Part shown: positions 1-47,870 of the stretch, piece after piece
How positions within the stretch are numbered: position 1 is the stretch's first letter
How the letters are laid out: every line of letters begins with the position of its first letter
DNA from: Polytrichum commune
Lineage: Eukaryota; Streptophyta; Polytrichopsida; Polytrichales; Polytrichaceae
Reading direction: 5' to 3'
Assembly: GCA_950295325.1 (NCBI GenBank)
Contig: OX485803.1
Coordinates: 2,790,001-2,854,000 of the forward strand
DNA length: 64,000 bases
The notes under the pieces: model-generated
What the model saw: only the letters and a program-made list of their open reading frames with translations
Databases searched by the model: none
Told to the model about the DNA's origin: nothing
Position numbers and translations under genes: made by a program

Positions 1-960
1 TATTTTTTGGTCACCTCACTAAAAGGCAAAAAGGAGGGCTAGTCAACACCTCCCAAAAAGACAAGGGTCATAGGAGGCATGTTGCTAAATATTGAAATAT
101 GTGCAATTAGGACTAGTACATGGACAAAAACAATACAAAAATGGATTTAGTGACACGCTTCCTATGACTCTTGTCATTTTGGAGATATTGTCCAACCCCC
201 TTTTGCTTGTAGCGTTGGTTCTTTTGGTGCAACCTACATGTTCCTATCTTAGTTTGTTTTTATGTTATGGGATCATGTGTTGTTGGGTCCATATTAAAAC
301 TTGTATCAATAGTACCAGTAAGCCTCTCTCATGTCAAAAACAAGTGATCTACATAAAGCTTCCCCGGCCACATGGCTCATGACAACATGTCAAAAGTAAA
401 CAACATCAACTTATTGAGCATATTAGAATTGAATAAGTTTGCCTACATAATACCATAATATGTCACCCGTTTCCATGTCTCTTGATACTCTAAGATATAA
501 AATACTCCAACCAATCATCAATGTATTTATCCATAAGATAAAAGTTTAATGTGCATAGCACCTTGAAACTTGTTGGGTGTAACGTGTGTGTGCCTATTGT
601 GAACAACTCTAAGATACTCTAAACATGACTACTGAAACACTGAAGATGTCTCAATAGGCCTCCAAATTATTGTTAGGTGGTTTTCATCAAAGGCCATTTT
701 CATTGAAGTTAGAGCATTTGATTTCATTGCAAGCTTAAACATTGTCGCTTGCAGAGAGAAAGAACTCCGGTCTCCTTTAGGGGGCCGGAGTGAATAAAGT
801 GTCTGTTCGTAGAACACCCTTGGCCATTACCCCAGGGTAATGGCGTTGGGTGTAATACTACTTCACCCTTTGCAGGGAGTAGACACTATATTAGTGACAG
901 TTGTTTTACCGGTGAACCGGTAATATATTATTATTATTGTTCTTATTGTTATATGTTATT
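1..960. other. Non-coding left edge, no gene seen
   Basis: I see no supportable gene here. The open frames are short and show no recognisable domain. Two small palindromes stand out: a GC-rich hairpin at about 767-790 (CTCCGG versus CCGGAG around a short loop) and the perfect inverted repeat TTACCGGTGAACCGGTAA at about 906-923. The latter is followed by an (ATT/ATA)-rich run that probably forms the 3' tail of the minus-strand LINE. Confidence 0.5.
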
Positions 961-987
961 ATCATTATTTTGACTTTATTATTTATC

Positions 988-2130
988 TTATGTGTGGTTT
1001 TGTATGTCTGTGATAGGTTGTCTATTTTCTATTCGCCTTTTATGGACTAGTATTAGGTGTGCATATTGTATGGCAATTAAGTTAATTTGTTTAAATGTGT
1101 TCCGAATTTGTGGGGGTGGAAGTTTAAGCTTTGTTTCGAGTTCTTTCATCGAGGGGATATGAGTGGTGGCCCTGGCACCTGCTGCTAGTACTATGAGTGG
1201 AGCGGTGTTCCATCCCCTTGCTATGATGTTGTTAATGAGTGGTTGATATTTTGTGGTTTTCCTTTCTCTAGTTTCAGCAGTAAACCTGTCATTGCAATAT
1301 GTGAATTCTATAAATTGGATAGTAATTTCTGGTGTAGGGGTGTCTGGTGGTGGATGGTTATATGGATGACCTATGACGCATAGTATGTCCGGTTTGAATC
1401 TAGCGTTGCAATGGCATCTCTGGGTACCACATGTACATGGTAGTAGCCATGTTGGTACTGTGTTTTCTTGGGGTATTTCATTGTATGTTCCTGCATTCAT
1501 GAGTATGTAGTGCCTTGAGACTTTATTTGAGATGAGGAGTTTACGTATTTCCCAAACTGCTTTGTTATGTCGTTTTGTTATTAATGCATGGATGTGTTGT
1601 TGTTTGCATTTAAGGAGTACATGTAACCATGTGTCTGCTTCTAAGGAGTTGCAGATGGGGCATGTATGGGATGGGTATGCGTCTCTACCGAAGAAAAGTT
1701 GTTTCCGAGCATGTCCCATATATTGTCCAGTTCTAAATTTTACTAGGCACGTTTTTTGTTTATCAGTGATGACATGACTATTCCAAAAATCATTTGAGAG
1801 TGTTTTGTCGATGTCTTTGTTATCAAGCCACTTGTGCAATTGGTGGGTTTGAGTGGCTATGATTTCAAGGTTATGTTTTTTGTCATGTTTAAGGATGTAT
1901 TTGCCAAGGTGTCTGATGGGACCTTTGTCAGGCGTTTCTTGCATTGAGTGCCACCAATCTCTTTGAAGGTAGTATGGTGTAGGGTGTGCGTGTTCATATG
2001 TTTCTACGGCGTCTCTATGGTCTAAGTTACAACCCATTTTTGCTAATTTGTCTGCTTCTTCATTGCCACTTATGTTTGTGTGGGCTTTGACTTTATGCAG
2101 TGTGGTTGGTTGTGTACGAGCCTGCAACAT
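988..2130 (-). pseudogene. LINE C-terminal piece: end of RNase H, CCHC zinc finger, restriction-like endonuclease (REL)
   Basis: This 380-residue open stretch starts inside the element, so its first Met is unlikely to be a real start. Residues 13-34 are the last RNase H motif (KVKAH then GNEEADKLA, with catalytic Asp27). A CCHC finger follows, with Cys157, Cys160, His170 and Cys175. About 70 residues later there is a Cys/His-rich stretch (233-241), then KPDIL with Asp248, FIEFTY with Glu275, and KYQPL with Lys294. CCHC followed by PD-(D/E)xK-like residues is the arrangement of the REL endonuclease of R2-type and Dualen LINEs, which nicks target DNA to prime reverse transcription. The assignment rests on motif spacing only. 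The frame is open throughout, unlike the upstream pieces. Confidence 0.65.
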
Positions 2131-2260
2131 TTTAATTATAGATTCAAGAATGGTCTTGTCTGGGTGATTGTTATGTAGGGTTGGGTGTTTTGTTTGTGTG
2201 TTAAGAAGGTATAAGACGTTAAGACAGTCTGTGAAGATATGTGCTGGCTCGTTTGGGTAT

Positions 2261-3934
2261 TTAGTAGTGGAGGCGTAGGGTGTGGTATATGGCCATCAAC
2301 TCAGCTCGTAATATATTTGGGAGTCCGGGTAACCTTTCTGCAATTTTTATGTTTTTAAAGGGGTTGTATATTCCGTATCCAGCTTTTTCTCTCCTCCAAT
2401 TCTCTTGGGTTATTTCTTTGGGTGGTATAAATGATCCGTCCGTGTAGTAACAATATTGTGGTTGGTATTTAAGGGGTAGGCATATGTCTTGGTTGGTGAG
2501 TGGTGGGGTATAGGCGTTTTGAGTGGCAGGTGGGGTGGCTGGATATGCAAGTTGAGACCAGTTTCTACTGTGGTTTACTGGGGTATTTATTGGTGTGGGT
2601 GGTGCGATTGTGCTAAATGTTGTGGGTATTTGCAAGTTATTGCAGATAATATCCATGTGTTGTGCATATCCCCTTGGGCCAATGGGTGTGGTTTTGTGGT
2701 GTATACATAATATCCATATGTCTCGGTTTTCTATTCGTGGTTCAATTCTTAATTCTGGTGGTATTGTGGGTTCGTCATATGTAATGGTGTCCGCTTTGAG
2801 GTGTGTGATAACGTGTGAGTCAGGGAATGGGCCATCATGAGGGTTGAGATTGTGGTACCAATTTGGGTCAGATGTTACGAGTATTGTAATTGTGTCAGGG
2901 TTGTTTTTGGCTGCCAGTCTTGCCCAGTGAAGGGCTTGTTGGGTGTCGTCCTCTGTATGTGGGTGGGCGTATCCGTGTCCTATCCATTTGTGTTGAAATG
3001 CCGATCCTATTGATCCGAAGACTTTGTCTCGGGGGAATGGTGAGGAGAATTGTCTCAACGTGGTGGGGCATGTTACTGGTGAGGAAAAGTAGGAGTGTGT
3101 GATGTGGAAGGAGTTAAGGATGTGTTCAAGGATGGGGTTGGGGAGCGTGTATTGTGAGAGTTTGAGGGGGTCGTTTTTAGGCATTCTATATTTGTACCGT
3201 TGGTACAACCATGCAACTTCTTGTTCAAATGTTTGTGTGGGGGGTTCTAGGTTATGTGGCTTATTTAAGGCATTTTGGTATTGTTTCCATAGCCATTGTA
3301 ATCTTACTTCGGGAATGGTGATTAAGTGGCGACCGTCGTTGTTGTAAATGTGTAATTCACCATGTTGGCTTTGGATGACATTTTCTGTATAGGCTATGTC
3401 ATTATCTGGGTTGCACTCATTAATAGTGATGTGGCATAAGGGCATGATCTGTGGCGGGGGAATGTATCGGGGGTCTCTCGTTTGTTCTGCGTTGAAGTTT
3501 GATTGTAAAATGTTGGTGAAGTGTTGGTTTTGCTTATGGGTATAATATTGTGTTAAAAGTAGAATGTTGTGGTTTATGGTGTTTTGGTTGTTCCATGGGA
3601 ACAAGTCTCTTTGGGGGAGCCATTTGTGGTAGATTGTTTCGTTTGGGAGTAGCCATTGACATAGGTAGGATGTGTATTTTTTGGTAATTTGGTGTTTGTC
3701 TTTGTAGGTGTTTAGGCGGTCCTTTATTATAGAGTGTATTGGGAATTGTATGTGGTTTTTTAGGATGTGTGAGGGTGGCTTTGGGTGTTCCGGTGTTGGG
3801 GGTGGTGGGGGGTTTATATTTTGTCTTCTTGTGTGTAGGTGATGGTTTGGTATTTTGTATTCATCCTTGAGGGTGTTTGGGGTGGCGTGTATTATACAGT
3901 TATTTGGGCAGTTGTAGTTAGTTTTTGCTCTCAC
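2261..3934 (-). pseudogene. LINE middle piece: linker, FGS-motif domain, first half of RNase H
   Basis: This is an open frame of 557 residues between the RT and the C-terminal piece. Residues 40-60 are proline-rich. Residues about 300-405 form a distinct block beginning PRDKVFGSIGSAF, followed by AHPHTEDD and an ILVTSDPNWY segment. The pattern recalls the PCIF1/phage-type adenine methyltransferase fold (FGS motif, NPPF-like loop), but the loop here is not canonical and the call is speculative. Residues 493-557 are the start of RNase H, with YTDGS (Asp499) and LRAELMAI (Glu545). The frame stops at 2261. The next RNase H motif (IFTDC) follows within about 30 bases in another frame, so a small indel splits the domain. 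Confidence 0.6.
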
Positions 3935-6010
3935 TTAAATAACCCAAAAACCCAGGGTACAGACTCTCAAGGAAGACTTAACTGGTGTCTATTACAGGCA
4001 TTTGTCACTTCATAGTTCATTAATTAGACCAAAGGGTTGTTGTCTTCACTCTAAAACATGACTGGTATATCTTTCACTCTCTTTCTCTCTCTTGGTTTCC
4101 TCTCACTATATCTCATTCAGTAGGGTATGTGTGTCAGTCTCGGTAGTAACCATCTCGTCATGAGATTTTGTAGAACAATAGTCAAGAGAGAACAATAGTC
4201 TTTGAGTAACACAATTGTCTTTTGATAACCATTGGCCAATGCATCTTCAATTCAAAGCAATTCCTTTATTACTTGGTCAATGTTAATTCCAATACAAAGC
4301 AATTGTTTATTCCTTATCTTCGGATTTAATCTCTACTCACAACTCATGCAATTAACAAGGTCAACAGTCAGCTATAGTCTTGGTCGCCCTGCACAACCTG
4401 CAACAACAACAACCAGGGTAACACACAAGACAATAGTTGAAAGGATTAAATCACATTCCATACTCAAAGATCTCTCCTCGTGACTAATTATCAATTAAAA
4501 CTTAATTAAGATGAGATTAACTTATGCCTAGATTCCCTTATAATCCAAAGTTAATCTTATTTGACTTACACTTGATCTCTCTTGCGCTCCTTACTCTTTC
4601 CTCTAATCAACTGATCAGAAGTGATTTCTCATCACTTCAGTTGATTAGGGCTATCTCTCTTAAATTCCATTCTTCTCAATTATAAATCTATCAGCCTAAT
4701 TGCAAAGTTTAGCTATAATCTCAAGTGGATGAACTATTAGCTTTTTATGTCCTCTGCCTCTCACAGGCCTTAACAATCGTCCATTGTGTCATTCACAAAC
4801 TCTGGACCCTTAGACTTCCTCACTTTGTCCGACACATGCTAACAATAGTCCACAGTTTTTCTCACAGGCTGACACTTGGCCTTACATCTTCCCCTCTGCC
4901 TATAGTATACCTTAACTATAGTCCATAATTAAACTTCACCCAGGCTAACGCTCAACTGGTACGACTTCTCCCTCTCACAGGTAATCGAAGGGTCACTCAG
5001 CAAGGCTTCCTGTTCCCTCAGACTATAGTTCGACTTCCCTTCACTCTCGATCACCCATGGCTCTGCTCTTCAATGACACCAGCCCATAGTTGCACTTGCT
5101 TCAATCTCGGGTACTGATCTTCTCACGTTCCCCATTTAGGTTTCACCTTCTTCGGCCAAGGATTTCACATACGCTCATAGTGTCAGAGGTTTCTCTCAAC
5201 TCAATTTTACTCTTCACGTACTCAATGTCCGCTCTCTGACTCCTAATCCTCATTTGCTCGACCATGTACGATCGCTTATGCTCAGGCAATAGTTACACAA
5301 TAGTCGTCTTGACTGCTCATAGTGTTTTACTCTGCATTTCTCCTTCAGATTCTTCCTTCCTTTCAGATCATTCCATTATTGCTCACTTCCTCATTATTTA
5401 TTCATCTTTCTCCTTCACGCCCTCTTTCACTCAGAGGTTGATTATTTCTCTCTTAGGCTCTCAATTCTCCTCGCACTTTGAAGTCATCCAGTTCCTCTCT
5501 CACTCTTGCATTGCCCTCTGCAATTCACACTCAATTAATTCTATTCTTACTTCAAGTCTCAGTCCCGGCCAATCCTGCCAACTGACAATCGTTTTCCATT
5601 TCACATTAACATAAACAAAACAAGAAAATAGTTCAACAAGGCTTCTGCCCTTCAATCGACTCAACATTCAAAATCACAATAAGCTTCAATAGGAAACAAT
5701 GTCCCGCAATCACTGCGGCGATCACTATGTTTACGTAGAAGATAGTTCAACAATTATCCTCGCCCGCTCTCGGTGCTGAGGGAGACTAGCCAATAGTTTT
5801 TTCTCTGCGCTCAACTATATTCGAAGACTGTCTGGCTTCTCCTTCCTCGGCCGCCATCTTACGGTGGCGAGGAGAAGATCGTTTTCATAACTACCTACTA
5901 AGGCCTCCTATGGCCGTGACAATAGTTATAACTACCTACTGAGCCTATTGTTCAACTATTTCCATTCATCTGGATGAGTTTCATCCCAGCTTCTAACCTA
6001 AGCCTATAGT
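3935..6010. mobile_element. CT-rich non-coding block that appears inserted in the LINE
   Basis: LINE coding similarity on the minus strand stops near 6010-6030 and resumes at 3934. The roughly 2 kb between is pyrimidine-rich, has no long ORF, and repeats short words such as caatagtc, ctatagtc and agttcaac. It looks like the LTR or untranslated part of a retrotransposon, or a large non-autonomous element, but I find no TG...CA ends, target duplication or primer binding site. A similar CT-rich block with catagtc words lies at about 59.1-61.6 kb. The boundaries are estimates from where the LINE frame is lost. Confidence 0.35.
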
Positions 6011-6152
6011 TGAACAATTCGGCCACAAATTTTGGCTTACAGCAGTGGTTGTAGCATGTTGGTTTGCAGAAGAGTATTCTTGCTAAGTCTAGGGCGGTTT
6101 TAATTATTTTGGTGGGGGTGTCGTAATAGTGTTTGAATTCATCGTTCGTCAT
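5952..6152 (-). pseudogene. LINE piece immediately upstream of the interruption
   Basis: This is a 66-residue open frame on the LINE strand. It contains ARILFCKPTCYNHCCKPKF, a Cys/His-rich stretch that seems to belong to the polyprotein between the RT thumb region and the middle ORF. The last residues, after about 6015, read into the CT-rich block and are probably not LINE sequence. The piece supports the view that the CT-rich block interrupts the element. Confidence 0.4.
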
Positions 6153-6368
6153 TAATTGTGTTCCATTGGGGTGAGTTATTTGCTTTAGTTAGGTTATGTT
6201 GTGTAGTATTAATTTATGTAGATATTTGAGGGATATTGTAGGTGTTAGGGTTGGTATATTATGTGTTTGGCGCATCCATTGTGTTTCCAATGATGTAGGG
6301 AGGAGGGGAAATTTTTGGAGTTTGCTTCTAAGGTGGATACCGCTCGTTGTTTTAAGTAAAAATAATGA

Positions 6369-6734
6369 TCATGTGATTGGTGATCTTATGCAGTCATGAT
6401 GGGATATCCGTGGTAGTTGTAATAATCCACTATGTTTGGCGAGTATATGTTTTGTTAGTCCGTTATATATTTTCCCGAGTCTCCCTTTGTCGTTAAGGGC
6501 ATTTATAAGTTGTTCCCCTATGCAGGTAATGTATGCGTTTTTTAGTGAGAAAGCTTTTGTGCCGAACATATCATGTGGTAGTTGTGTAACTGCATTTGAC
6601 ATGCATTTCGGTAGACCGCATATAGTTTTGTGGAGAGCAATTACTCTTCTATCTAGTTTTTTGATGGCGGGGAGTGAGTATGGGACAACGTAGAAACTAT
6701 AGGCGATACCAGCCTGTAAAACTGTGTCTATCAT
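6369..6734 (-). pseudogene. LINE piece: post-RT (thumb) region
   Basis: This is a 121-residue frame beginning IDTVLQAGIAYSFYVVPYS, a typical sequence just after the RT palm where LINEs have an L..G..Y....P.S motif. It is separated from the RT piece upstream by a stop (about 6826) and a small frameshift near 6740. It continues, less clearly, through about 6150 in another frame. Catalytic function is lost with the breaks. Confidence 0.6.
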
Positions 6735-6825
6735 TTATAATTTTTTGTTTCATAGTGGCTGGATTTGCAATTAGAAGTTTGCATTGTTTGATTAGTTTGG
6801 TCGTTGTTATGTATGTTTGTATTTT

Positions 6826-7491
6826 CTATTGTAGCGATGGGACTAGGCTAATTCCAAGGTAGACATATGGCTCATGTTGGCTTAGAATAGGTATGGGTTG
6901 ATTCCTAAAGTTGATGTTTATTGTTTGTAATTGGATTTTAAAGGCTTGAGGGTTTAGTTTTGATTTATTGGGGCATCTTGTGACCGCACATTTTGGGATA
7001 CCCAGGTCCATTCCCGCCCATTCGTAATATTTGTCGAGTTTGTTTAGTTGGTGTTGAAGGGATGTTAGTTTGTTGGATATGGCTGCTAGATCATCTGCAT
7101 AAGCAGCAGCGCTTAGTTCTACATTAGAGGTGTTAAAGGAGTATCCATTGTTTCCTCTTTCTAGCCATCTGAGGAGTGGTTCAAGAAAGATGATAAAGAG
7201 ATACGGGCTTAGTGTATCACCTTGTATAGTTCCTCTTTGTATAGGTATCGGTTGTGTTTTGTCGAAATGTTCACCAATAAATGTAGTAGTGGATTGTGAG
7301 TAAATATTACCTACTAGTGCTACGGCATCATTTGGATAGCCAAGGTCTTTCATAATGGCAAGGAGTCTGGCGTGATCTATAGAGCCGAAGGCATTTTTGA
7401 AGTCAATGTATAGTATATATATATATCTTGATTGGTGAGCCTCGCGTCTTCTAATGCTGGTATAAGAGTTTGTAGTTGTCTGGCGGTACAC
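6826..7491 (-). pseudogene. LINE reverse transcriptase core (YADD)
   Basis: From about 7420 downward the protein reads ILYIDFKNAFGSIDH (RT motif A with catalytic Asp), then TIQGDTLSPYLF (motif B), then YADDLAA at 7090-7101 (motif C, catalytic Asp pair). This is a non-LTR-type RT palm with all three catalytic aspartates. The first 22 residues of this frame are not RT sequence: the true frame comes from the upstream ORF and is shifted at an (AT)n tract near 7415-7425. The frame ends in a TAG at 6826-6828 where the family would continue. Confidence 0.8.
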
Positions 7492-7497
7492 ATTTCA

Positions 7498-8118
7498 GCT
7501 CAAAAACCCTCTTGGCTGTCATGTAGGATTTGGTATTTCTCCCCGTATGTGGAAAGTATGCTTATAAGTGTGGTAGTGAATAGTTTATATATTGTGTTGG
7601 CGAGTGCAATTGGTCTATGATTGGTAAGGTGATGAGGGTTTTTTTTTTTGTATAAAAGTATTGTGTGGCTAGTTTTCCAGGATTCCGGTATTTGTTTTTG
7701 TTTGTAGCAGTGGGTAAAAAATAATAACAGAAGTGTGTGGAATCGAGGTGGCATATTTTTTAATATGGCGTTAGGAATTTTATCAGGGCCAGGGGTTTTT
7801 CCATTGGCTAGGTTTTTAAAACATATATCATATGTTTCTTGGTCAATATATGTATGTAACGGGGTTAGTGGTTCACCTCTCTTCTCGATATTGAATCCAT
7901 TTAAATCATGCCACGGGTATTGTCGGACTCCACACGTGCAGTGTTGTATATGATCTGGTTGGTAGTGACATGTTGGGACGGTTGGTCTATTATTGATTGA
8001 CTGTTGGCCGAATATTTATTGTGCAATGTCGTTAGGGCTCGTGAGAATGTTGTTAAATTTGTCTACGATATAGTCTAGCGGGGGAGTGTCGTTATTTTTG
8101 TCGCTTGCATGTCTAACT
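7498..8118 (-). pseudogene. LINE RT fingers, N-terminally truncated
   Basis: Reading down from about 8118, the sequence carries the RT fingers region: NGKTPGPDKIPNAILKN at about 7820-7760, then HRPIALANTIYKLFTTTL and QEGF. A TGA at 7498-7500 replaces the expected Arg codon after QEGF, which fits decay of a CGA codon. After the stop the same frame continues with CTARQLQTLIPALEDAR, as expected for LINE RTs. LINE similarity disappears at about 8118, which I take as the 5' truncation point. Confidence 0.65.
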
Positions 8119-38450: not shown

Positions 38451-39034
38451 TGCTTAGTCTAGCTTAGCCATAAGCAGGGAGAAGATTGAGGACTCGAGGC
38501 CCGTCTTGAGACTAATTCAGTGAGATTTGCATTGGATTAGCGTGATGAGGTAGCTTACTTAACGTTCGTAAGATGTTGCGAACATAATTCGGGAGGAGGA
38601 ATGCGAGGTCCAGATTGAGCGGCTAGCCCGTGGGGTTGAATCTGGTGGGCCATCCATGTGTCGAATGGGGAAGGTGCAAATCATCAGTCCGCCAGTGCCG
38701 GAAATGGGATAATATCTGGCTTGCTGGAGACTGGAGATTGCTTTGTAGACCGGCGTGACCCCACGCCCTGCTTTGCAAGAGTTGCCAAGTGGCTGGTCGT
38801 CTTCATCGCCTGCCCACACCCAACGTAAGCTTGCCACCTTCGTCCCCTAAGCCCAGCCCCAGCAGCGGTGGATTTCGTCGCTGCGTGGTAAGAATCTGGT
38901 AGCATGTGGCTTGCCAAGGTCTGTAACACGCTGGTACATAACTTGGCCCTTCCTCCCTCTCGACCCAGCAAAGAACACCACCATCGAATTATTTTCACTA
39001 CTTCTTTCCTCTTTGGCCTCTTCCATCCACCAAC

Positions 39035-39300
39035 CGTATGCTGCAGCAAAAACCGTGAACGAGGAAGTTTGCAAGAGTGTGAAATTGGTAAGGTTGTATC
39101 ATATTTTCGAGGAATTTTTTTTCTTTCCGGAGATAGACCTTGCATTTCTTGTTCGAGCAAAGGAACAGCTACTCGAGTGCAGGAGCAGTGTTGCAGTATT
39201 TCTTCGGCCCTCAAACCATCCAGTGTTGCAGCGAAAACTGTGAACGAGGGAGTCTTGTGGGTGTGTGATTTGAGTGTGGGAGGAATTTCTCTAGATTTTC
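39035..39300 (+). repeat. Duplicated leader segment upstream of the 39399 gene
   Basis: tgcagcaaaaaccgtgaacgagg at about 39043 recurs as tgcagcgaaaactgtgaacgagg at about 39228, with further similarity downstream; the period is about 185 bp. Confidence 0.6.
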
Positions 39301-39398
39301 CGTTTTTGCAGTCACGGGGGAGTGGTCTTGCCATATTCGAAGTTGTGACTGCAGAGGGAAGTTTGTATTTCCAGGGACATATTTTGGGTTTTGAGAAG

Positions 39399-40046
39399 AT
39401 GGCACTTAAGTCGCAGTCCGCGGTTGCACAAGCAGTGAGCAGCTTGCTAGTCACAGACCCCAAGATTTCGGCTCCCGCCAGCAAGTCCCCCGGTGTGGTT
39501 CCTTTGTCTGTGAAGCCCAAGCTCCAGAGCTCCCAACTGCGGAGAACAAAGTCCCGGAAGCCTGTTAAGGTCAACTCAAAGGTAACCTCTGCCCTGCAAG
39601 TGGCACCATCCAATACTAATGCATCAGACGCAGCGGCCAAGATCGGAGAGGAGATTGCAACTTCGGCTGAAGGAATTTTGGGTGCAGTGCGGACATCCGT
39701 AGCTCAAGATGGATCTACCAGCAACATGCATGTCAAGAAATCCCCGGGCAAGGCAACCACGAAGACATCAAGGCGGAGGGCGTTAGCAATGTGCTTGGCC
39801 CTGGGCATGGTTGGTCCACGTGTGAGTAATGCATCGGCTGCGAGTAGCAATCCGGCAGCGTCACCAAATGCAACAGATCTTCGGAGAACTGTGTCTGCAA
39901 TTCCGTTGCGGAGGACTGCATCTTCATCTATGGCGTTTAGGATGCCTAGCCAGCTTGTAAGTCAAGTATCTCTGGCTACGTCTTTGAAGCAGACGAACCT
40001 ACTTGGGGAGAAGGAAGATATGCAGAAGCTTACTACTATTCAATAA
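39399..40046 (+). CDS. Unknown plant protein, 215 aa; paralogue of the gene at 46359-47033
   Basis: I do not recognise this family. The open frame extends upstream to 38904. I start at 39399 (GAGAAGATGGC, a good plant start context) because the upstream part is made of the duplicated leader and has no counterpart in the paralogue. The protein is Ser/Ala/Lys-rich, basic and probably largely disordered. A short helix-like stretch lies at 78-100 (DAAAKIGEEIATSAEGILGAV). The strongest block is SRRRALAMCLALG at 124-136, followed by a basic Ser-rich tail with LRRTASSSMAFRMPSQLVSQVS at 170-191. The N-terminus (MALKSQSAVAQAVSS) might be an organelle-targeting peptide, but this is not decisive. Two of its tail motifs recur in the 46 kb gene, which supports real coding. 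Confidence 0.6.
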   Translation: MALKSQSAVAQAVSSLLVTDPKISAPASKSPGVVPLSVKPKLQSSQLRRTKSRKPVKVNSKVTSALQVAPSNTNASDAAAKIGEEIATSAEGILGAVRTSVAQDGSTSNMHVKKSPGKATTKTSRRRALAMCLALGMVGPRVSNASAASSNPAASPNATDLRRTVSAIPLRRTASSSMAFRMPSQLVSQVSLATSLKQTNLLGEKEDMQKLTTIQ

Positions 40047-46358: not shown

Positions 46359-47033
46359 CTAAATCACTGTGTCTGTCTGATCACTGACATGCTTGGATGC
46401 TCCGAACGACACTTGTGATGCGAGCTTCCAAGTTGTTGCAAAACTTGAAGAGGAATTGCTTCGAAGGTTGGGTGTCCTCTGATAATTATTCTGGGACATG
46501 ATTATATCCTCAGTATGCTTTCGAAGGCCACCGAGAGCCAGACAGACGATTAAAGCCCTCCGTTTCATCGGCCGGGGCGTCGTCCTGCCTGTCTCCTTCA
46601 AGTAATTTTGGCCATCGACGAAGTCTGCAAGTACAGCATTGACAGTGTTGACAAAATATTCGTTGCTCACTTCACCCTCGTCGCCATTGGATGCACCCAG
46701 ATCAGGAGAATTTGTTGTTGTAATCTTCTCTTCATCGTGGAACTTTGCATGCGATGTTGTTGCCATGTTCAGCACCATAGGATTAGCGCTGCGGACCAGA
46801 CCGCCATTTGCCCTGATTGTAGGTGTGGCAAATGTTCGGAATGATGATGATGGACGACGGCGATCGACCGAAAGCCTCATCGACTTAATTCTCTTGTAAC
46901 TCAACCGGCTCGAATGTTTCTGTAACTTATCAGTGCTGCCGAGGAATGTCGGAACAAGTTTTGGCAGATTTGGAGGGGTCAACCTACTTGTAAGGGTTTC
47001 TGAGGGGATTAGAGAAACCCCCACCTCCGCCAT
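46359..47033 (-). CDS. Unknown plant protein, 224 aa; paralogue of the gene at 39399-40046
   Basis: I do not recognise the family. I start at 47033 (CCATGGCGGAGG, a strong context); the frame is open for 23 more codons upstream. Residues 1-85 are rich in Ser, Thr, Arg and Pro with few acids, compatible with a chloroplast or mitochondrial targeting peptide. An acidic stretch lies at about 100-125, then a possible helix (EYFVNTVNAVLADFV, 125-139). The block KRRALIVCLALGGLRK (157-172) and the tail LRSNSSSSFATTWKLASQVS (190-209) match SRRRALAMCLALG and LRRTASSSMAF...LVSQVS of the 39.4 kb gene in the same order. The two genes are 6.3 kb apart in opposite orientation, convergent. Divergence is high, so the duplication is old. 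Confidence 0.6.
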   Translation of the reverse strand: MAEVGVSLIPSETLTSRLTPPNLPKLVPTFLGSTDKLQKHSSRLSYKRIKSMRLSVDRRRPSSSFRTFATPTIRANGGLVRSANPMVLNMATTSHAKFHDEEKITTTNSPDLGASNGDEGEVSNEYFVNTVNAVLADFVDGQNYLKETGRTTPRPMKRRALIVCLALGGLRKHTEDIIMSQNNYQRTPNLRSNSSSSFATTWKLASQVSFGASKHVSDQTDTVI

Positions 47034-47094
47034 GGCCAGAAGAGTGCTGATCACCTTCCAAACAAGTATTAACCTGCAAAACTCGTGCGTAGAA

Positions 47095-47870
47095 TCCTGC
47101 AACCGAAAGAAATTCGCTGTTTCTTGATGGTTTTTTGATGTGTTGTTAGAGTCAGCAGGCCGGCGGATCCAGGAATCTGCAATTGAATGTGTGTACCTCG
47201 GACGACGACGAGAACCACCTCACGAGACTAATAGAATATCCCAGAAGATTCCTTCACCAAGTAAACTTTTCCCAACATTGGTTGAAGAACAATCCTAATG
47301 CAACCGAAAGAAATTGCCTGTATCTTGATGGCTTATGTACTGTTAAAGTAGCAGCGCTCCAGATTCACCAATCTCCAACCATAAATATACCTCGGACGAC
47401 ACCAGAAATAACCTCGCAAGGCTAATGAAAATATCGCAAAATTCTTCACGAAGATTTGCTCCAATTGCACCTTTCACAGAATTGAGCCAGTCGAAGAACA
47501 ATCCTCAGGCACCCGAAAGAAGTGATTCCTTGTGATTTCTTCGTGATGTTATTGTACAACAAGCAGCATCCAGATTCGCCAATCCCCAATCCAATCTATA
47601 TATTCGTCGAACAACAACGACAACTTCTTCCAACCATTCAAGAACCACGTCAAATCTTGTCTGCAACGGATTCACAGTCCCTGGTTCTGATGGATTTCAA
47701 TTATGTGCAACAAGAAGCAGTAGCAAGCAGCAGGCAGATTCACCCATCTTCAATTCAATATATAGTTGGGTATTTATCTCGGAGGACAACAACAACAACC
47801 TCGCAAGACTAATTAATAGTAGAAGAAGATCCCAGAGACGCTTCACAAACACTCCAACCAATTCACACTA
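47095..47870 (-). repeat. Three tandem units upstream of the 46359-47033 gene
   Basis: (c/a)ccgaaagaaat starts units at about 47100, 47302 and 47511. Each contains tcttgatgg or tcttcgtgatg, cagattc(a/g)ccaatc, tacctcggacgac (absent or altered in unit 3), cctcgcaag.ctaat and atttcttcac/gcttcacaa. The units are 200-290 bp long. They lie in the 5' flank or leader of the gene. Confidence 0.7.

What the first reader, a model, noticed from the sequence alone, without database searches (positions are those of the whole stretch)
960..8118. Land-plant LINE with RT, RNase H, CCHC and restriction-like endonuclease
Seen: YADD RT core, the RNase H residues (YTDG, RAEL, FTDC, NEEAD), a CCHC finger, then KPD...FIEFT...KYQ. 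Known: plant LINEs described so far are mainly L1 and RTE types with an AP endonuclease; REL endonucleases occur in R2-like and, together with RNH, in Dualen elements of Chlamydomonas. Inference: this is a REL-bearing RNH LINE in a plant nuclear genome, an unusual lineage that may have survived from an algal ancestor or arrived by transfer.
Basis: partly seen in the sequence, partly recalled or inferred. Interest (0 to 1): 0.75.

Follow-up and report, generated by a model that had tools for sequence, protein, structure and literature searches.

The report
Moss jumping gene with two endonucleases
The window holds a dead, shortened copy of a large self-copying mobile element, most likely in a moss genome; fuller copies elsewhere in the genome encode two DNA-cutting enzymes, a reverse transcriptase, an RNase H and an unexpected domain related to the mRNA-cap methylase PCIF1.

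Summary
On the minus strand, 754-8097, lies a 5'-truncated, frameshifted non-LTR retrotransposon copy with a 12-bp target-site duplication, interrupted by about 2.1 kb of other DNA. APE plus REL marks the Dualen/RandI group in papers whose passages I read, reported there from green algae and cryptophytes. The RT lies outside L1. REL rests on motifs and a modest profile match to R2. The host is a land plant, most likely a moss (inference). The PCIF1-like domain lacks NPPF (44 of 45 stretches read AHP-x-x, one is frameshifted there), yet is under purifying selection; I infer RNA or cap binding rather than methylation. No Dualen reference sequence was available, so clade membership by tree, and vertical versus horizontal origin, remain untested.

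The parts
754..8097 (-). 5'-truncated LINE copy (element proper), not functional: frameshifts, one insertion
742..753 (.). target-site duplication, copy at the element's 3' end (TGCAAGCGACAA on the element strand)
8098..8109 (.). target-site duplication, copy at the element's 5' end
7500..8015 (-). ORF fragment: N-terminal part of the RT region
   Evidence: tblastn with the L021 RT: window 7958-7410
6826..7494 (-). ORF fragment: RT core with YADD (RVT_1 1.3e-21; best PDB match an R2 protein)
6369..6734 (-). ORF fragment directly downstream of the RT core
3919..6041 (.). about 2.1 kb of DNA inside the element that does not match the sister copy L022 (gap between the two matching stretches); not identified
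2882..3277 (-). PCIF1-like domain, Pfam PF12237; AHPHT where human PCIF1 has ANPPF
1993..2449 (-). RNase H domain, in two frames
1606..1662 (-). CCHC finger C-X2-C-X9-H-X4-C
1120..1572 (-). probable restriction-like endonuclease: RHNxxV, KPD, FIEF, K..KY, GAR
765..887 (-). conserved 3'-terminal RNA structure (closing stem, inner hairpins, terminal GC-rich hairpin)
754..764 (-). pyrimidine tail TTCTTTCTCTC ((TTC)n in sister copies)

Best explanation
The window holds a dead copy of an autonomous dual-endonuclease non-LTR retrotransposon with the Dualen/RandI plan in a land-plant, most likely moss, nuclear genome. Inferred cycle: the mRNA gives an ORF1 protein and an ORF2 polyprotein whose leader is released by 2A-type ribosome skipping; the RT complex recognises the conserved 3'-terminal RNA fold and short-repeat tail; one of the two endonucleases nicks a chromosomal target of no fixed sequence for target-primed reverse transcription, leaving duplications of about 8-14 bp and 5'-truncated copies. 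RNase H removes the template. The PCIF1-related domain between RT and RNase H is kept by selection although its NPPF motif is gone; most likely it binds RNA (perhaps the cap) rather than methylating it. Shown: domains, fold, tails, duplications, copies, selection. Inferred: all activities, 2A skipping, the role of the PCIF1-like domain, and which endonuclease makes which cut.
For: One uninterrupted 2169-aa frame (L021) holds APE (PF14529 5.3e-7; PF03372 7.4e-4, below its cut-off), RVT_1 2.5e-26, PCIF1_WW 1.6e-9 and RNase_H 8.3e-15; APE, RT and RNase H motif residues are in place (roles recalled). RT profile against the PDB: best R2 chain 4.8e-31, best chain named LINE-1 ORF2 3.7e-20; the tree puts 8 elements outside a group of the L1-like chain 8c8j and 3 L1s of this genome (support 99). 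REL: profile comparison with R2 REL stretches scored 20.4, maximum 9.8 in 160 column shuffles. PCIF1-like: 16 of 16 members match PF12237; PCIF1 chains are the only 2 PDB hits at E <= 1; profile score 48.7 against a maximum of 24.1 in 100 shuffles. Duplications of 11-14 bp in 5 of 13 loci printed and of 8 bp in one more, flanks all different. 3' fold: 9 of 36 pairs with changes on both sides, shuffle mean 3.4, 0 of 500; window copy z -5.0. Median dN/dS 0.07-0.19 in seven segments. 1455 matches to the 3' signature with up to 2 mismatches, reversed control 0.
Against: No Dualen/RandI sequence was available, so no tree tests the clade. Not all R2s are nearer than L1: the R2-type chains 8gh6 and 8ibw score 1.2e-18 and 2e-17, weaker than L1, and they were not in the tree. 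REL is not found by hmmsearch against the PDB nor by Pfam (SwaI-like, 0.096, in 1 of 12); the comparison tool's own run gave only E 0.057, probability about 1%, score 17.4, while the unrelated RT and PCIF1-like profiles scored 13.4 and 10.9. In that alignment R2's catalytic D does not fall opposite FIEF; that pairing is my reading by eye, and FIEF has E where R2 has D. One 3'-fold measure does not exceed shuffling (further pair types 19 against 18.1, 185 of 500). The cysteine protease that I recall for Chlamydomonas Dualen was not found. In 7 of 13 loci no duplication was seen; for 5 of these the aligned start is probably not the true 5' end, for L010 and L027 there is no such excuse. Median dS is above 1 in all seven segments, so dN/dS is rough. 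No expression or activity data.
Confidence: 0.8

Rival explanations
1. An APE-type LINE of another clade (for example of the I group) whose C-terminal CCHC region only resembles a REL by chance.
For: RNase H is reported from I-group clades and plant L1 as well as Dualen/RandI (passage of PMC4640811); REL is undetected by Pfam and by hmmsearch against the PDB; the tool's hhalign margin over unrelated profiles is small.
Against: The order KPD, K..KY, GAR matches R2 along 76-80 of 81 columns and beats 160 of 160 column shuffles; the region is under purifying selection (median dN/dS 0.134); the best RT match is R2.
Confidence: 0.14
2. A plant L1 element with an added C-terminal domain.
For: Plant-type L1 LINEs are common in the same genome (141 zf-RVT matches of 150 scored).
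Against: RT outside the L1 group (support 99), 21-22% identical to the L1s of this genome and 25-27% to two R2s in the two elements compared; REL-like and PCIF1-like domains present.
Confidence: 0.02
3. The PCIF1-like domain is an active methyltransferase with a changed active site (H for N in the NPPF-like motif) that methylates the element's own RNA or cDNA.
For: Domain under purifying selection (median dN/dS 0.155); A178, H179 and P180 invariant in 16 of 16 aligned members.
Against: N and F of NPPF are absent in 44 of 44 stretches readable there; in PCIF1 the motif is catalytic (recalled).
Confidence: 0.2

Closest known systems
Dualen / RandI non-LTR retrotransposons
   Same: APE and a PD-(D/E)xK-type endonuclease in one element (passages of PMC3636483 and PMC4640811) and RNase H (PMC4640811); short-repeat tails are also listed for Chlamydomonas SINEs that share RandI ends (PMC3747384).
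   Different: Host is a land plant (a survey table in PMC4438587 lists the group for green algae only; PMC12747079 reports it in cryptophytes); PCIF1-like domain and 2A-like leader are not mentioned in the passages I read; the cysteine protease I recall for Dualen was not found.
R2 group (REL LINEs)
   Same: CCHC finger followed by REL with KPD and K..KY; the best RT matches in the PDB are three R2 chains.
   Different: R2 lacks APE and RNase H and targets rDNA (recalled); these elements have both domains and varied flanks.
PCIF1/CAPAM, the mRNA cap m6Am methyltransferase
   Same: Shared stretch with LP, F, SP, C, FGS and G, and the A-x-P of the motif.
   Different: No NPPF; embedded in a retrotransposon polyprotein.
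Plant L1 LINEs
   Same: APE (recalled) and RT; L1s share this genome.
   Different: RT group, REL-like and PCIF1-like domains.

Membership tests
Dualen/RandI | AP endonuclease upstream of RT | tested here: met
   PF14529 5.3e-7 in L021 and 3.3e-9 in L022; lost from the window copy by 5' truncation
Dualen/RandI | restriction-like PD-(D/E)xK endonuclease downstream of RT | tested here: inconclusive
   motifs and profile comparison with R2 REL better than 160 of 160 shuffles speak for it; weak by the tool's own statistics and absent in hmmsearch and Pfam
Dualen/RandI | RNase H domain | tested here: met
   PF00075 8.3e-15
Dualen/RandI | RT clustering with known Dualen RTs | not testable with these tools
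   no Dualen reference sequence; the small tree shows only: outside L1, separate from two R2s
Dualen/RandI | cysteine protease domain (recalled for C. reinhardtii Dualen; not part of the definitions in the passages I read) | tested here: inconclusive
   no such Pfam hit at E <= 1 in L021 ORF2, in leader frames of L024, L022 and L023 or in two ORF1 pieces
plant L1 | RT inside the L1 clade | tested here: not met
R2 group | REL without APE and RNase H (recalled for RNase H) | tested here: not met
   APE and RNase H present
PCIF1/CAPAM methyltransferase | homology over the PF12237 region | tested here: met
   16 of 16 members, best E 1.2e-13
PCIF1/CAPAM methyltransferase | catalytic NPPF motif | tested here: not met
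   AHPHT 29, AHPHN 12, AHPPN 2, AHPDT 1 of 45 stretches; one (L018) frameshifted there
2A ribosome-skipping peptides | D[VI]ExNPGP (motif recalled) | tested here: met
   15 D-x-x-x-NPG-x motifs in 8 of the fetched loci, upstream of APE; 5 of 15 fit D[VI]ExNPGP strictly; skipping itself untested
LINE integrated by target-primed reverse transcription | target-site duplication and 5' truncation | tested here: met
   6 of 13 loci printed, 8-14 bp

The most novel reading that the evidence does not exclude
A LINE has taken up the cap-methylase fold of PCIF1 as a catalytically dead reader of the cap or leader RNA inside its reverse-transcription protein. By holding the 5' end of its own mRNA beside the RT it would enforce cis-preference or favour completion of full-length cDNA. 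This would be a cap-recognition part in a non-LTR retrotransposon, in a dual-endonuclease lineage that thrives in a land plant.
Probability: 0.2. Interest if true: 0.82.

Novelty: new variant of a known kind. Interest (0 to 1): 0.6.

Why it matters
Dual-endonuclease LINEs were proposed as the link between REL-type and APE-type retrotransposons (Kojima and Fujiwara 2005, recalled; a passage of PMC4640811 argues the same way). A land-plant genome with over a thousand 3' ends of such elements, in several families, two copies with ORF2 frames above 2900 aa, would extend their known range and give a place to ask why an element keeps two endonucleases. A conserved PCIF1-related domain in the same protein was not described in anything my paper searches listed, and makes a direct question testable: can a retrotransposon read or modify the cap of its own mRNA?

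Tried and rejected
Rejected: plant L1; REL-only R2-like element (APE present); chance motif hits (98 protein matches). Led nowhere: scans of viral contigs with the PCIF1-like, RT and REL alignments and with two R2 RT stretches and of genome contigs with the R2 stretches found no relative; Rfam on the window gave nothing at the gathering score, and on one 3' UTR one sub-threshold match (SNORA81, 0.37); no tRNA. My first script for the 3' ends printed nothing, redone. Paper searches for a PCIF1 domain or other methyltransferase domain in retroelements, for Dualen in mosses or plants and for a Polytrichum genome listed no such report; of their hits I saw listings only, and passages (not whole texts) of PMC4640811, PMC8226300, PMC12747079, PMC4438587, PMC3747384, PMC7824862 and PMC3636483. 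(PMC5890265 in the listing reports cytosine methyltransferases in retrotransposons, a different kind.) Most subscription journals are not held and listings were capped, so this shows little about what is in print. Rows dropped: PCIF1-like alignment A1 uses 16 of the 47 sequences matched; REL alignment A2 12 of 35, RT alignment A3 8 of 12; 3'-end alignment A4 13 of 25 usable tails. Left out were mostly near duplicates, copies with stops and split matches. Of the 47, three loci repeat places also held under another id (L001, L002, L013). In one search pairs with dS outside 0.25-3 were left out.
Full report
What is there. Pfam finds RVT_1 (1.3e-21) in 6826-7494, RNase_H (9.6e-7) in the 988-2295 frame and, unexpectedly, PCIF1_WW (1.5e-10) in the 2261-3934 frame. 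The copy is dead: the RT region is spread over three ORF fragments, RNase H over two frames, and about 2.1 kb that does not match the sister copy lies at about 3919-6041. It runs from 754 to 8097 between two copies of the 12-bp sequence TGCAAGCGACAA, so it is a 5'-truncated LINE insertion. The finding's 960-8118 is close to this.

The genome. The window is C1:2790001-2854000 of a 408-Mb assembly in 64 contigs; the REL-end protein has 98 matches there, a lower bound since 97 of 6149 candidates were scored. LEAFY is present (4 matches), and one LEAFY DNA-binding exon reads GLDYLFDLYEQC. The D there is, as I recall, the moss-type residue where most land plants have H. Window neighbours match aminotransferase class V (4.5e-17) and M48 peptidase (9.2e-14). 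I therefore read the host as a moss. This is inference; no named genome was compared.

Fuller plan of the element. L021 has one uninterrupted 2169-aa frame with APE (PF14529 5.3e-7; PF03372 7.4e-4, below its cut-off), RVT_1 (2.5e-26), PCIF1_WW (1.6e-9) and RNase_H (8.3e-15), followed by CCHC and REL-like motifs. APE, RT and RNase H motif residues are in place (roles recalled). Upstream lie an ORF1 frame (1186 aa in one copy; no Pfam match in the two pieces scanned) and a long ORF2 leader. Two copies have open frames of 2919 and 2924 aa. The leader carries one to three 2A-like motifs: 15 in 8 of the fetched loci, 5 of which fit D[VI]ExNPGP; in each of the 8 loci one motif (NPGP, NPGS in L024) directly precedes the ORF2 start MP(D/N)(L/I)L.

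Reverse transcriptase. A profile of 8 elements matches three R2 chains best in the PDB (4.8e-31 to 1.1e-27), then L1-type chains (1.4e-20 for 8c8j, named RNA-directed DNA polymerase and near-identical to L1 ORF2 in the printed stretch; 3.7e-20 for the best chain named LINE-1 ORF2), then two further R2-type chains, 8gh6 and 8ibw (1.2e-18, 2e-17). In a tree with two of the R2s, 8c8j and three L1s of the same genome, the L1s form one group (support 99) without these elements, and R2 is separate. The tree is small, lacks the weaker R2s, and says nothing about Dualen itself.

Restriction-like endonuclease. hmmsearch against the PDB and Pfam did not find it. With R2 REL stretches drawn from the PDB, hhalign aligned 76-80 of 81 columns starting at KPD. 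Its own statistics are weak: E 0.057 and score 17.4 in the tool, where the PCIF1-like and RT profiles scored 10.9 and 13.4 over 1 and 10 columns; E 0.00066 and score 20.4 in my run with other settings. That score exceeds all 100 shuffles of the R2 columns and all 60 of the element columns (maximum 9.8 each). The alignment does not put R2's catalytic D opposite FIEF; that reading is mine. I take REL as probable, not proven.

PCIF1-like domain. All 16 aligned members hit PF12237 (best 1.2e-13; one member also has an unrelated hit at 0.0071). The only PDB hits of the profile at E <= 1 are two PCIF1 sequences (0.0052 and 0.071), and a comparison with the printed PCIF1 stretches scores 48.7 against a maximum of 24.1 in 100 shuffles. 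The genome search scored 150 of 697 candidates, all above the cut-off; 0 of 14 control genomes ring. At the place of the catalytic motif PCIF1 has ANPPF; of 45 stretches that cover it, 44 read AHP followed by HT, HN, PN or DT, and one (L018) is frameshifted there. All 17 loci fetched on PF12237 matches align with the element's domain, and 16 of the 17 show RNase H sequence beyond it within the piece fetched, so these are elements; I saw no separate host PCIF1 gene among them. Median dN/dS is 0.155 here, against 0.071 for RT, 0.102 APE, 0.134 REL, 0.161 RNase H and 0.18-0.19 for the linkers; median dS is above 1, so these are rough.

3' end and integration. The families share a 3' terminus: a long stem, inner hairpins and a GC-rich terminal hairpin, then (TTC)n, or TATC-type repeats in two distant families. 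On 13 sequences, 9 of 36 pairs change on both sides (shuffle mean 3.4, 0 of 500) and sliding the partners lowers pairing from 95% to 31-49%; the count of further pair types does not exceed shuffling (185 of 500). The window copy folds at z -5.0. A 22-base signature of this end occurs 1455 times with up to 2 mismatches, reversed control 0. Target-site duplications of 11-14 bp appear in 5 of 13 loci printed and one of 8 bp in a sixth, with unrelated flanks. In five of the other seven the aligned start is probably not the true 5' end; in two (L010, L027) none was convincing. So insertion is not into one fixed sequence.

Comparison. Passages of PMC3636483 and PMC4640811 describe Dualen/RandI as encoding APE plus a PD-(D/E)xK-type endonuclease; the second also lists RNase H for it. 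A survey table (PMC4438587) lists the group only for green algae; PMC12747079 reports it in cryptophytes; PMC8226300 mentions it in Chlamydomonas and relatives. By plan the elements here are of this kind; by tree this is untested. PCIF1-like domain, 2A-like leader and a land-plant host set them apart from what I could read. PMC7824862 (passage) places a family of phage methylases nearest PCIF1, so relatives of this fold occur in mobile genomes.

Mechanism. Most likely target-primed reverse transcription with 3'-fold recognition, a leader released by 2A skipping, and two nucleases of which one may make the first and the other the second nick. The PCIF1-like part is best read as a dead methylase kept for RNA or cap binding. 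None of these activities was measured.

Noticed in passing
window 3919-6041: About 2.1 kb of inserted DNA in the element with scattered AATAGTTgAACAA-like repeats; a short piece of the target (CTACAAC) seems to stand on both sides. Not identified.
   Followed up: partly
3' UTR after the ORF2 stop in L008, L009, L011-L021, L023, L024, L028, L030: A further conserved block (TAGCTCAG...CCGG.TGGTTGGT...CCAAGTC...GAATCGAACCCGGACCG) that looks structured and partly tRNA-like; related blocks in L031-L033, missing in the window's subfamily. In L024 no tRNA hit and no Rfam hit above threshold.
   Followed up: partly
window 994-3934; L021 ORF2: Coding strand strongly A+C rich (window A 0.388, C 0.294, G 0.126, T 0.191; G 7.5% at third positions in L021), against a balanced rest of the window.
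   Followed up: partly
L031 6177-6297, L032 5957-6077: These distant families end in TATC-type repeats rather than (TTC)n, so the tail repeat differs between families.
   Followed up: no
window 38892-40046 (+) and 46359-47219 (-): Two ORFs in opposite orientation share stretches such as RRAL..CLALG and QVS (by eye); possibly a duplicated host gene pair.
   Followed up: no
G000 C24:11558-13828 and C3:874345-876615: Contig C24 repeats matches of C3 with identical scores and frame lengths, perhaps a duplicated or haplotypic contig.
   Followed up: no
L052 (G000 C1:40569930): LEAFY gene whose DNA-binding exon has D at the position I recall as 312 (moss type).
   Followed up: partly
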